Of a stretch of 26,385 nt of DNA, positions 14,945 through 24,459 are shown one piece after another (the stretch's first letter is position 1; the number at the start of each line of letters is the position of its first letter). Source of the stretch: Acidobacteriota bacterium. Lineage in GTDB: Bacteria; Acidobacteriota; Terriglobia; Terriglobales; Acidobacteriaceae. The notes beneath the pieces are model-generated. The model made no database searches, was not told where the DNA came from, and worked only from the letters and a program-made list of their open reading frames with translations. The position numbers and the translations under genes were made by a program. The stretch is taken from positions 1-26,385 of the forward strand of contig JAJZIF010000005.1 of the NCBI GenBank assembly GCA_021810735.1. The letters run 5' to 3'.

Positions 14945-15997
14945 TTACCACTCGATCAAAAGCATTTCGCAGCAAAAGCCGGGCCCCATGGCGGCGAGGA
15001 TGCTTTTTGTCCCGGGCGCGGGGCGATGCTGCTTCATGACGTCATCCAGAACAACCAGAACCGATGCGGAGGAAAGGTTGCCGACGCGGCGGAGAGCCTG
15101 CCACGAAACGGCGAGCGCGCCGCGCTCCAGTCCGAGCGCGTCTTCTGAGGCTTCCAGCACTTTGGGTCCGCCGGTATGCATGATCCAGCAGCCAATGTCA
15201 GCGCGGGTAAGGTGGTGCGCGGCGAGAAACTGGTCGACATCGCGGCCGAGGTTGTCGCGGATGACGCTGGGAACATCGGGCGAGAGAACGATCTGGAAGC
15301 CCTTCTCGGAAATATCCCAGCCCATGACATCTTCGGTGTCGGGATAGAAGACCTGGGCGTGGTCAAGGATACGAGGGCCGGATTTTGCATCCGGAGTCTC
15401 TTCGCCGGCGATGAGTACGGCTGCCGCACCGTCGCCGAAGAGGCCCGTGGAGATGAGATTGGCGACGGAGACATCGCCGCGCTGCCAGGTGAGCGAGCAG
15501 AGTTCGACGGCAAGCAGGACGGCGTACTGATCTGGGTAGGCCTTGACGTAGTCGGCAGCGCGGGCCAGGCCTGCGGCTCCGGCGACGCAGCCGAGACCGA
15601 AGATGGGATTGCGGCGGATCCGCGGCGAGAGCTTGAGGCGGTTGACGAGGCGTGCATCAATGGACGGGCTGGCGACGCCGGTGACGGAGACGAAAAAGAT
15701 GGCGCCGATCTGGGCGCGGTCGATGCCGGACTGCTGGATGAGGCATTCGATGGTGCGCTCGCCGAGGTCGAGGGCGGTTTCGATCCAGACGTTATTGGCT
15801 TTGCCCCAGGTGTCAAGAGCGCGATAGTCGGCCAGCGGGCGCGAAAAGTAGCGGCCATCGACGCCGGTGCGCGAGTGCAGGCGCTCGAGGATGGCCGTAT
15901 CGACCGAGTGCTGCCAGTAGCTCGCAAGTTCGTCGGCGATCTGGCTTTGCGTAAAGTAGTACGGCGGATAGGCAGTTGAGGTGGTAATGATTCGCAT
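14945..15997 (-). CDS. Type III polyketide synthase (chalcone synthase-like)
   Basis: Homodimeric ketosynthase that extends an acyl-CoA starter with malonyl-CoA and cyclises the chain; bacterial members often make alkylresorcinols, alkylpyrones or naphthalene derivatives. The 350 residues match the family. The catalytic triad is visible: Cys137 in GLGCVAGAAG, His274 in MHTGGPKVLE and Asn307 in GNLSSAS. The glycine-rich C-terminal loop reads AMGPGF, a variant of the GFGPG signature. KAS III (FabH) is less likely because of the HTGGPKVLE/GNLSSAS form and the GPG loop. The usual partners (O-methyltransferase, flavin monooxygenase, isoprenylcysteine methyltransferase-like protein) are missing, so the product is undefined. 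The start MRIITTSTAYPPY is plausible, with only a weak purine-rich upstream sequence. Confidence 0.92.
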   Translation of the reverse strand: MRIITTSTAYPPYYFTQSQIADELASYWQHSVDTAILERLHSRTGVDGRYFSRPLADYRALDTWGKANNVWIETALDLGERTIECLIQQSGIDRAQIGAIFFVSVTGVASPSIDARLVNRLKLSPRIRRNPIFGLGCVAGAAGLARAADYVKAYPDQYAVLLAVELCSLTWQRGDVSVANLISTGLFGDGAAAVLIAGEETPDAKSGPRILDHAQVFYPDTEDVMGWDISEKGFQIVLSPDVPSVIRDNLGRDVDQFLAAHHLTRADIGCWIMHTGGPKVLEASEDALGLERGALAVSWQALRRVGNLSSASVLVVLDDVMKQHRPAPGTKSILAAMGPGFCCEMLLIEW

Positions 15998-16133
15998 TCG
16001 CAGTTCGCTTCGATGTTAGTCCTTCAGGAGGTTGGCCATCAGGCAGAGTGCCGAAATGACAACCATTGTTTTGCTGCGATGAACAGTGTGATGCGCTTGA
16101 CGGCGCGGCGCGCATCGGAGAAGCTGATTGCAG

Positions 16134-16240
16134 GGCGGTGGAGTTCGCCTCAATCCAACCGTTGCCGGTTCCGGCAGCCAATGACTCCTGACACTTTATG
16201 ACGATGGTGGCTGCGCTTGCAGCCTGAAGTGCCAAGGAGG
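16134..16240 (+). ncRNA. Fluoride riboswitch (crcB motif) with translational expression platform
   Basis: Upstream of crcB, P1 is GGCG (16134-16137) with CGCC (16146-16149). Its loop GTGGAGTT contains GGAGT (16140-16144), which pairs with ACTCC (16184-16188) as the defining pseudoknot. A 6-bp stem (16161-16166 with 16173-16178) lies between them, and the conserved AATGACTCCT follows at 16180-16189. This arrangement and these bases closely match the known crcB motif, for example that of Bacillus cereus. Downstream, CTCCT (16185-16189) is also complementary to the AGGAG (16235-16239) of the ribosome-binding site, CACTT (16192-16196) to AAGTG (16227-16231), and GGCTGC (16209-16214) to GCAGCC (16219-16224). 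A ligand-free fold could therefore hide the ribosome-binding site. Aptamer identity is strong; the switching mechanism is inferred. Confidence 0.86.
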
Positions 16241-16253
16241 ATTTTCGACTCGT

Positions 16254-16628
16254 ATGAAATTTCTGTGGATTGCGCTCGGCGGGGCGCTGGGAGCACTTGC
16301 CCGCTATGCAGTGGGTGTGTGGGTGTACGAGCGTATGGGAACACGATTCCCATACGGTACCCTTCTCATCAATGTCACCGGCTGCTTTTTGATGGGCCTG
16401 GTGCTGGCCATTCTGGACGCACATCTGGAGTTGAATCCGGCATGGAGATATGCGGTTCCGATCGGATTTATCGGGGCATATACAACCTTCTCCACCTTTG
16501 AGTACGAAACGCTGCACGCGATGCAGAACGGGCAGGCGGCCACGGCGCTTCTGTACTTTGGCAGCAGCCTGGTTTTGGGCTTCATGGCTGTTTGGCTGGG
16601 GATGCAGAGCGGGCGGGTGTTTGCGTAG
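16254..16628 (+). CDS. crcB: Fluoride channel CrcB/Fluc
   Basis: Small inner-membrane protein that exports toxic fluoride as a dual-topology dimer. The 124 residues and four hydrophobic segments (about 3-23, 34-55, 66-88, 96-117) are typical. Recognisable motifs are GGALGALARY (9-18), GTLLINVTGCFLMG (35-48) with the pore Asn40, and GFIGAYTTFSTFEYE (71-85) carrying the two pore phenylalanines Phe79 and Phe82 of the TTFSTF box. The ATG follows an AGGAGG with a rather long 13-nt spacing. A fluoride riboswitch immediately upstream supports both identity and regulation by fluoride. A hairpin beginning at the stop codon ends the unit. Confidence 0.96.
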   Translation: MKFLWIALGGALGALARYAVGVWVYERMGTRFPYGTLLINVTGCFLMGLVLAILDAHLELNPAWRYAVPIGFIGAYTTFSTFEYETLHAMQNGQAATALLYFGSSLVLGFMAVWLGMQSGRVFA

Positions 16629-17487: not shown

Positions 17488-18336
17488 CTAATTCCCGGCA
17501 GCTTTTTCGGCGGCTTCGACGGTCTGGGCGATGAGCGTCGCGATGGTCATGGGGCCGACCCCGCCGGGTACGGGCGTATAGGCCGAGCAGCGGTCGATGA
17601 CCTTGGAAAGCTCGATGTCTCCGACGCCGCCCGGGTGGTAGCCAGCGTCGATGACAACGGCTCCGTCGCGGATCCAGTCAGCCTTGATGAACTCAGGCTT
17701 GCCAACGGCTCCGACGAGGATTTCCGCGCGACGGACGACTTCCGCCAGATTTTTGGTGCGCGAGTGGCAGATGGTGACGGTGGCGTTGGCGCCGAGCAGC
17801 ATCATGGCCATGGGCCTGCCAAGGATGGGGCTTCGGCCGACGACGACGGCTTCCCTGCCCTCGACGGGAATCTTGTAGTGGCGGAGCATGCGCATGATGC
17901 CGCCGGGCGTGGCGGAGCCGTAAACGGGCTCGCCCATCGCCATGAGGCCAAAGCCGAGGGCGGTGACGCCATCCACGTCCTTGGCGAGGGCGATGCGGTC
18001 GAAGCAGGCGCGCTCGTCGATCTGCTTGGGCACGGGGTGTTGCAACAGGATGCCCTGGACGCGGGGATCCGCATTCAGCTCGTCGATCTTCACCAGCAGC
18101 TCGGCGGTGGAGGTTTCCTCGGGGAGATGAACGGCGAGCGAATCCATGCCGACGCGGCGGCAGGCGTTGCCCTTCATGCGGACATACGTCGCCGACGCCG
18201 GATCTGCGCCCACAAGGATGGTGGCGAGGATGGGCGTTTCGCCGCCGGTTTTGACGCGGAGCGCTTCCACGCGGGTGAGAAGTTCCCCTTCCAACTGCTT
18301 TGCATAGGCCTTACCGTCGAGTACGAGAGCGGACAT
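17488..18336 (-). CDS. folD: Bifunctional methylenetetrahydrofolate dehydrogenase/cyclohydrolase
   Basis: Interconverts 5,10-methylene-, methenyl- and 10-formyl-tetrahydrofolate, supplying one-carbon units for purines and initiator tRNA. The 282 residues match the family. Key residues are Tyr51 and catalytic Lys55 in [14 protein letters not shown], the QHPVPKQID loop (often QLPLP in other species), DVDG in [10 protein letters not shown], the Rossmann phosphate loop [11 protein letters not shown], and the C-terminal [11 protein letters not shown] signature. The ATG is preceded by a short AGG. It is the downstream neighbour of phoU on the same strand with a 115-bp gap, and it is tail to tail with the HNH gene, 14 bp apart. 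Confidence 0.96.
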
Positions 18337-23445: not shown

Positions 23446-24459
23446 ATGCATCGATGGACCAGGCTGTGGGCGGTGGCGGTGATTTTCGCGGGGACGGCTC
23501 TGCTGGCTACAGGGACGCCGCTGCGCGCGCAGGACGACTCTTCGCTGCAGGCAACGGTGGACGCCATCGCGGCGGCGCATCACGGCAAGGTAGCGCTGTT
23601 TGCCGAGGACCTGAAGACCGGGCAAACGGTGGCGCTCGACGCGAACACGCCGGTGCCGACCGCATCGGTGATCAAGCTGACGATTCTGTACGAGGCGCTG
23701 GAGCAGATTCGCGAGGGCGAAACAAGCCTTGAGGCGCCGGTGATGCTGACAAAGGCGAACCAGGTGCCGGGCTCGGGCGTGCTGCAATTTTTTGACACAC
23801 CGCAGACGCTGACTCTGAAAGATGCGCTGTCGATGATGATGATCCAGAGCGACAACACCGCGACGAACGTAGCGATTGACAAGCTGGGGCTCCAGAAGAT
23901 CAATGCGCGGATTCGTGAGCTCGGGCTGAAGCACACGCACCTGTTTCGGAAAGTCTTTATGCCTTCGCCGGAGCCGGAAACCCCAGAAGCAAAGAAGTTT
24001 GGACTGGGCGAGACAACGCCGCGCGAGATGGCAGAAGTGATGCGGAAACTGGTGACCTGCCAATTGGCGACACCGGGACATCCATCTGCTGCGGGCGATG
24101 CGGCGTTATGTAACTTTGCGCTGCACATTCTGGCCTGCCAGTCGGATCGGGATGGAATTCCGCGCTACCTGGAGGCGCTGGACACGGGGACGACGAACTC
24201 GGACATCGCCAACAAAACGGGCGCGGAGAACGCAGTGCGGAATGACGTGGCCGCCATATCGACAAAGAATGGAATTGTGATTCTCTCGTTCTTCACTTAC
24301 GACAACGAGGACCAGAGCTGGACAGCGGATAACGAGAGTTACATCACGATGGCGAGGTTGGCCAAGGCGATTGTGGATGCATGGTCGCCGCAGGGACTGG
24401 AGAACTGGACCGGGTTGAGCGAGCGGGAGAAGTATGGGAAGGTCGAGGCAGGAAAATAA
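23446..24459 (+). CDS. Class A beta-lactamase-like serine hydrolase
   Basis: The 337-residue exported protein has a signal peptide at about 1-28 (AVAVIFAGTALLATGTPLRAQ). The serine penicillin-recognising fold is marked by SVIK (Ser74, Lys77), SDN (135-137) and KTG (257-259). In the omega-loop region, by hand alignment to TEM, Glu176 in EPETP takes the place of Glu166. Asn170 is replaced by Pro180, and the loop has extra residues before GETTPREMAEVMRKL. Class A enzymes hydrolyse penicillins and cephalosporins in the periplasm; with this loop the activity spectrum is uncertain, and a D-Ala-D-Ala peptidase-like role is possible. GGAGG stands 5 nt before the ATG. No regulator (AmpR/BlaI) is adjacent. 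The stop codon overlaps the T-tract of the convergent aminotransferase terminator. Confidence 0.85.
   Translation: MHRWTRLWAVAVIFAGTALLATGTPLRAQDDSSLQATVDAIAAAHHGKVALFAEDLKTGQTVALDANTPVPTASVIKLTILYEALEQIREGETSLEAPVMLTKANQVPGSGVLQFFDTPQTLTLKDALSMMMIQSDNTATNVAIDKLGLQKINARIRELGLKHTHLFRKVFMPSPEPETPEAKKFGLGETTPREMAEVMRKLVTCQLATPGHPSAAGDAALCNFALHILACQSDRDGIPRYLEALDTGTTNSDIANKTGAENAVRNDVAAISTKNGIVILSFFTYDNEDQSWTADNESYITMARLAKAIVDAWSPQGLENWTGLSEREKYGKVEAGK

What the first reader, a model, noticed from the sequence alone, without database searches (positions are those of the whole stretch)
16134..16256. Fluoride riboswitch before crcB that appears to hide the ribosome-binding site
The sequence shows a complete crcB-type aptamer. 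Its pseudoknot strand (ACTCC/CTCCT, 16184-16189) is also exactly complementary to the crcB AGGAG (16235-16239). Two further nested pairings (16192-16196 with 16227-16231; 16209-16214 with 16219-16224) would build a continuous ligand-free hairpin with the ribosome-binding site in its base. Fluoride-stabilised pseudoknot and hidden ribosome-binding site would therefore be mutually exclusive, a compact translational ON switch. No T-run is present that would suggest transcriptional control.
Basis: partly seen in the sequence, partly recalled or inferred. Interest (0 to 1): 0.75.

Follow-up and report, generated by a model that had tools for sequence, protein, structure and literature searches.

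The report
Fluoride riboswitch with swapped tertiary pair
An RNA switch in front of a fluoride-export gene in an acidobacterium is real and probably works by hiding the ribosome-binding site, and it carries a swapped base pair, at a spot usually treated as fixed, that varies in matched pairs among bacteria.

Summary
The window (Acidobacteriota) holds a fluoride riboswitch aptamer at 16134-16189 ahead of crcB (16254-16628). Translational fluoride switches are already known, so that part is ordinary; complementarity of ACUCCU to an RBS is nearly automatic.

It scores 31.9 bits against Rfam's cut-off of 34. The published long-range reversed Watson-Crick pair A6-U38, whose formation fluoride promotes, is here G6-C38 (16138, 16179), with A at 39.

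This looks compensatory. Pattern searches that left both positions free gave 78 distinct sequences in Acidobacteriota plus 22 matches in three other phyla: 80 A-U, 10 U-A, 10 G-C, 0 other (5 of the G-C lie in genomes chosen for carrying one). On gene trees, 11 of 12 supported independent contrasts at position 6 change position 38 too. A looser parse found 5 non-Watson-Crick cases in 212; no C-G. The G-C aptamer precedes crcB in three related species.

Seven literature searches listed no report of this variation, but the founding papers could not be read. Verdict: new variant of a known kind. Fluoride binding and translational control remain inferred.

The parts
16134..16149 (+). P1 hairpin of the aptamer: GGCG / CGCC around loop GTGGAGTT
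   Evidence: RF01734 alignment; fold
16138..16138 (+). Position 6 (T. petrophila numbering): G instead of the consensus A
   Evidence: alignment; numbering of A6-U38 and A40-U48 from PMC11586693, placed on the window by spacing
16140..16144 (+). Pseudoknot 5' strand GGAGT
   Evidence: complementary to 16184-16188
16161..16178 (+). P3 hairpin (7 pairs, loop GTTC)
   Evidence: fold
16179..16180 (+). Position 38: C instead of U (partner of 16138); position 39: A instead of G
16181..16181 (+). A40, linchpin base, conserved; partner U48 at 16189
   Evidence: linchpin A40-U48 in PMC8752731 and PMC11586693
16184..16189 (+). Pseudoknot 3' strand ACTCC plus U48; CTCCT (16185-16189) is also the anti-RBS strand
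16185..16239 (+). Ligand-free hairpin: 16185-16189 with 16235-16239, 16192-16198 with 16225-16231, 16209-16214 with 16219-16224
16234..16240 (+). Shine-Dalgarno sequence AAGGAGG, 13 bases before the ATG
16254..16628 (+). crcB, fluoride exporter family, 124 aa
   Evidence: Pfam PF02537, E 2e-31

Best explanation
A fluoride-sensing riboswitch that turns on translation of crcB. Without fluoride, the strand CUCCU pairs with the ribosome-binding site in a long hairpin. With fluoride and magnesium that strand is held in the aptamer pseudoknot and the ribosome-binding site is free. The aptamer belongs to a natural variant in which the long-range reversed Watson-Crick pair A6-U38 is replaced by G6-C38, together with A instead of G at position 39; the two bases changed together and so keep the contact that fluoride promotes. 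Shown here: sequence, homology, gene context, predicted folds, covariation across genomes. Inferred: fluoride binding, the geometry of the G-C pair, translational control.
For: Full-length RF01734 alignment, 31.9 bits, E 2.7e-7, directly before crcB. The same-genus leader of G002 scores 36.8, above the cut-off, that of G003 32.0; both, and G177 of the same family, carry G6-C38-A39 before crcB. The window's fold sequesters the RBS; in shuffles of the intervening bases the window's RBS/pseudoknot-strand pairing is reached in 0 of 100, G002 1 of 100, G177 3 of 100; two-sided changes keep one apical pair (G002) and one lower-stem pair (G003). Covariation 6-38: 78 of 78 distinct pattern matches Watson-Crick, 100,000 shuffles average 52.5, maximum 64; 22 of 22 further matches in three phyla (counted by eye); reversed-pattern control 0 in every genome listed; 11 of 12 independent supported contrasts concordant, 0 opposite. 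No terminator-like site in the leader.
Against: Below Rfam's cut-off. G003: RBS pairing with the pseudoknot strand only 0.22, 90 of 100 shuffles reach it. Over the 14 of 49 crcB leaders that could be analysed, the mean pairing is below shuffles (0.38 against 0.47), so the device is not general. Five non-Watson-Crick combinations exist among 212 loosely parsed aptamers. The gene-tree test assumes that aptamers travel with their genes; no single tree is significant alone. The link of A39 to G6-C38 is weaker once phylogeny is considered. RBS to ATG spacing of 13 bases is long.
Confidence: 0.78

Rival explanations
1. A decaying aptamer: the changes at 6, 38 and 39 are degeneration and crcB has lost fluoride control; other switches in the genome do the work.
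For: Score under the cut-off; the nearest genome G001 has two higher-scoring fluoride aptamers elsewhere (59.0 and 40.6 bits).
Against: The same three letters are kept in G001, G002, G003 and G177 while the rest of the leader diverges; P1, P3, pseudoknot and linchpin are intact; the two changes are complementary, and G-C recurs in several phyla.
Confidence: 0.07
2. Fluoride switch that controls transcription: the hairpin is a weak terminator or a Rho-dependent site, and RBS pairing is incidental.
For: TTTT stands just after the hairpin (16242-16245); many fluoride switches control termination (PMC13273304, abstract and passages).
Against: No terminator-like site in the leader; the tail in G002 and G177 lacks a run of four T; the hairpin ends inside the RBS in the window, G002 and G177.
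Confidence: 0.12
3. The pair swap changes the ligand: G6-C38 aptamers sense something other than fluoride.
For: Changes at conserved bases have altered specificity in other riboswitch classes (recalled, no call).
Against: 24 of 42 G-C aptamers with a downstream frame precede proteins that cluster with those behind A-U or U-A aptamers, CrcB among them (6 of 42) (recounted from its cluster list); the other 18 sit in G-C-only clusters or alone. The fluoride site is built of Mg2+ and phosphates (PMC11586693, passages).
Confidence: 0.03
4. Position 6 and 38 look coupled only through shared descent of a few aptamer lineages.
For: Pair types cluster on gene trees; A39 travels with G-C.
Against: At least 21 changes of pair type over seven gene trees and 11 of 12 independent contrasts concordant; three different Watson-Crick types and 0 mismatches in 78 distinct sequences.
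Confidence: 0.05

Closest known systems
Fluoride riboswitch (crcB motif, RF01734)
   Same: P1, P3, pseudoknot, linchpin A40-U48, position before crcB
   Different: G6-C38-A39 instead of A6-U38-G39; below the Rfam cut-off
Translational fluoride riboswitches such as that of Pseudomonas syringae (named as translational control in PMC13273304, passages)
   Same: ON switch by RBS access is the proposed logic
   Different: Here the anti-RBS strand is the pseudoknot strand itself, with two nested stems; the detailed platform of the P. syringae switch was not seen in a call
Levitt (reversed Watson-Crick G:C) pair of tRNA (PMC3902895, abstract and passages)
   Same: Long-range reversed Watson-Crick G:C contact joining distant parts of an RNA (for the aptamer: inferred geometry)
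   Different: Here near a fluoride/Mg2+ site, and also found as A-U and U-A

Membership tests
Fluoride riboswitch RF01734 | Score at or above the curated cut-off (34 bits) | tested here: not met
   31.9 bits. The same-genus homologue in G002 meets it (36.8), that in G003 does not (32.0). The cut-off is a curator's threshold, not a structural feature.
Fluoride riboswitch RF01734 | P1, P3 and H-type pseudoknot | tested here: met
   (5 of 5 pseudoknot pairs, 4 of 4 P1 pairs)
Fluoride riboswitch RF01734 | Linchpin bases A40 and U48 | tested here: met
   A 16181, T 16189
Fluoride riboswitch RF01734 | Long-range reversed Watson-Crick pair 6-38 | tested here: inconclusive
   Complementary bases present but G-C, not A-U; geometry not testable
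Fluoride riboswitch RF01734 | Position before a fluoride-response gene | tested here: met
   crcB
Fluoride riboswitch RF01734 | Binds fluoride | not testable with these tools
   Needs in-line probing or similar
Translational ON riboswitch | RBS hidden in a fold exclusive with the ligand-bound fold | tested here: met
   Predicted only; weaker in G003
Translational ON riboswitch | No terminator in the leader | tested here: met
   Consensus scan only
Translational ON riboswitch | Ligand raises translation | not testable with these tools
   Needs reporters

The most novel reading that the evidence does not exclude
The identity of the reversed Watson-Crick pair (A-U, U-A or G-C, with the residue at 39) is a natural tuning knob: it sets how strongly or how fast fluoride locks the aptamer, so that genomes with several fluoride switches have graded thresholds. 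A G-C pair in this geometry would be steadied by the neighbouring Mg2+ cluster, which might explain why C-G was not seen.
Probability: 0.25. Interest if true: 0.65.

Novelty: new variant of a known kind. Interest (0 to 1): 0.45.

Why it matters
The fluoride aptamer is a model for RNA folding and for how RNA binds an anion, and this pair is one of its two long-range contacts that respond to fluoride (PMC10687018, passages). Covariation gives evolutionary support for a contact so far known from crystals and probing. It offers natural double changes for testing how that contact sets the response. It also shows that a family model with a fixed A and U scores some real members too low: the window copy falls below the cut-off.

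Tried and rejected
The rteR match at 16226-16298 (34.4 bits, cut-off 72) is rejected: it overlaps the crcB start and has under half the cut-off. The P10 match (15.5 bits, cut-off 37) is rejected as chance.

In the scan, 41 of the 83 matches in the 80 displayed loci lack pseudoknot pairing and were dropped: 30 C-C, mostly one recurrent stretch in Proteobacteria taken by eye as coding, 3 C-G, 4 U-C, 2 G-C, 1 G-A, 1 G-G. The three dropped C-G matches have no pseudoknot.

Variation of position 6 as a by-product of a longer P1 was rejected by reasoning: its would-be partner is a fixed T in the search patterns while position 6 varies A/G/U.

The first aptamer parser had a wrong index; its counts are discarded and replaced. 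MAFFT misaligned the platforms of G003 and G177, so pairs were checked by set coordinates. Quick trees differ between runs (44-row tree 8 changes, 6; 17-row tree 5 and 4); the lower set is used. One search was cut in the output and its tests were rerun shorter. The RBS test shuffled single bases, not dinucleotides, and could use only 14 of 49 crcB leaders.

Literature: searches list no paper that announces natural variation of A6-U38. Some listings were capped (30 of 78 papers, 10 of 18). Two founding papers (doi 10.1038/nature11152, 10.1126/science.1215063) are not held, and supplements could not be read, so the variation may be visible in unread alignments. PMC13273304 (section 33 read) gives P1, pseudoknot and P3 as the covarying regions of RF01734; PMC7657543 (passages) adds the pseudoknot.

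Full report
WHAT IS THERE. The leader of crcB (16254-16628; Pfam CRCB, E 2e-31) holds a fluoride riboswitch aptamer. Rfam finds nothing at gathering score in the window, but 16125-16197 aligns to RF01734 over its whole length at 31.9 bits (cut-off 34; E 2.7e-7 for the 301 bases searched). P1, P3, both pseudoknot strands and the linchpin bases are intact.

THE PLATFORM. The fold puts AGGAG of the ribosome-binding site (RBS) against CUCCU of the pseudoknot strand, so the two folds exclude each other. That complementarity is nearly automatic for an aptamer ending in ACUCCU (it resembles the 16S rRNA tail; recalled). The nested stems are the better evidence. Homologous crcB leaders from G002 and G003 (same genus) and G177 (same family) fold alike in outline (z -2.0, -2.4, -2.6; window -1.9). 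G002 keeps the lower stem, changes one apical pair from U-A to C-G and loses the outermost apical pair; G003 changes one lower-stem pair from A-U to U-A and two others on one side, all still paired. G177 has an unrelated hairpin between the same two end strands. The mean probability that the RBS pairs with the pseudoknot strand is 0.80 in the window (0 of 100 shuffles of the intervening bases reach it), 0.80 in G002 (1 of 100) and 0.83 in G177 (3 of 100), but 0.22 in G003 (90 of 100). In G003 the longer fold pairs the RBS, the shorter one prefers a shifted register. Of 49 crcB leaders held then, 16 passed the start-motif filter and 14 had a usable RBS; their mean is below shuffles (0.38 against 0.47), so this is a feature of the window's lineage, not of crcB leaders at large. 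No terminator-like site is in the leader. Translational fluoride switches are already described (PMC13273304, passages).

THE VARIANT. The Rfam consensus has A at position 6 and U at 38; the window has G (16138) and C (16179), and A instead of G at 39 (16180). Published work names A6-U38 of T. petrophila as a reversed Watson-Crick pair (PMC11586693, passages), A5-U35 in one B. cereus numbering (PMC8004769, passages). Fluoride promotes its formation (A10-U38 in PMC10687018, passages). So the two changes are complementary at a tertiary contact.

COVARIATION. Pattern searches with both positions unspecified and other conserved bases fixed gave 32 matches in 396 Acidobacteriota genomes and 60 in 200 genomes of the window's family. 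The pattern does not require the pseudoknot 3' strand, but the same pattern read backwards matched nowhere in the genomes listed. The union is 81 matches, 78 distinct: 63 A-U, 10 U-A, 5 G-C, none of the other 13 combinations; 100,000 shuffles of one position average 52.5 Watson-Crick and never exceed 64. Three further phyla, each centred on a genome chosen because it carries a G-C aptamer, add 7 matches in 299 genomes (6 A-U, 1 G-C), 4 in 140 (1 A-U, 3 G-C) and 11 in 118 (10 A-U, 1 G-C); all five of these G-C lie in genomes already known to carry one. Altogether 100 of 100 are Watson-Crick. A looser parse of all sequences then held, with ascertainment bias, gives 212 distinct aptamers: 108 A-U, 55 U-A, 44 G-C and 5 others (A-C twice, one of them doubtful; C-C; G-U; U-C); no C-G.

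INDEPENDENCE. Downstream proteins were clustered; ten clusters have four or more members and seven of these vary in pair type. Their trees need at least 21 changes of pair type. Twelve contrasts on supported branches differ in A6: in 11 U38 changes with it, in none the opposite way, in 1 it does not. Single trees have too few contrasts to be significant alone, and the count assumes that aptamers travel with their genes. On the crcB tree the window, the G002 homologue, G003 and G177 form one supported G-C group.

POSITION 39. A39 goes with G6-C38: 5 of 5, against 5 of 66 for A-U and 1 of 10 for U-A in the 81 matches; 39 of 44 against 16 of 163 in the biased set. Across gene trees the link is less clear (on average 5.8 concordant, 0.1 opposite, 3.1 unchanged), so it may be partly descent.

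LIGAND. 24 of 42 G-C aptamers with a downstream frame precede proteins that cluster with those behind A-U or U-A aptamers, 6 of them CrcB; two precede an enolase-like protein (name by eye, no family search was run on clusters other than the window's own genes). The other 18 stand in G-C-only clusters or alone. Fluoride is therefore the likely ligand.

HOW IT LIKELY WORKS. Fluoride and Mg2+ stabilise the pseudoknot and the long-range pairs, hold CUCCU, and free the RBS. G:C pairs in the reversed geometry are weak alone and are steadied by divalent metal on the guanine or by further contacts (PMC3902895, abstract and passages). A place beside three Mg2+ could supply that; this last step is conjecture.

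LIMITS. No structure or binding data for a G6-C38 aptamer were found. The window's own genome is not held; the nearest, G001, shares 83% of sampled words and has the same aptamer. The founding papers and supplements could not be read, so novelty rests on seven literature searches, some with capped listings.

Noticed in passing
L109 3955-4136: A U6-A38 and a G6-C38 aptamer stand back to back within about 180 bases, a natural side-by-side comparison.
   Followed up: no
L253, L254 (Eoetvoesiella caeni contig, genome G585) and genomes G583, G584, G587: Some genomes carry 9-11 RF01734 matches each; in G585 all nine lie on one contig between 36.8 and 59.1 kb.
   Followed up: partly
L060, L066, L095, L121, L134, L144: A recurrent G6-C38 form with P1 AGCG/CGCT whose link to P3 lacks the usual AAC, near other fluoride aptamers.
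   Followed up: no
L032 (nearest genome G001): Two diverging fluoride aptamers (59.0 and 40.6 bits); one precedes an enolase-like protein (name by eye).
   Followed up: partly
window 14945-15997 (-), 17488-18336 (-), 23446-24459 (+): Neighbours by Pfam: a type III polyketide (chalcone) synthase-like gene divergent from crcB, a folD-like gene, and a beta-lactamase-family protein (Beta-lactamase2).
   Followed up: no
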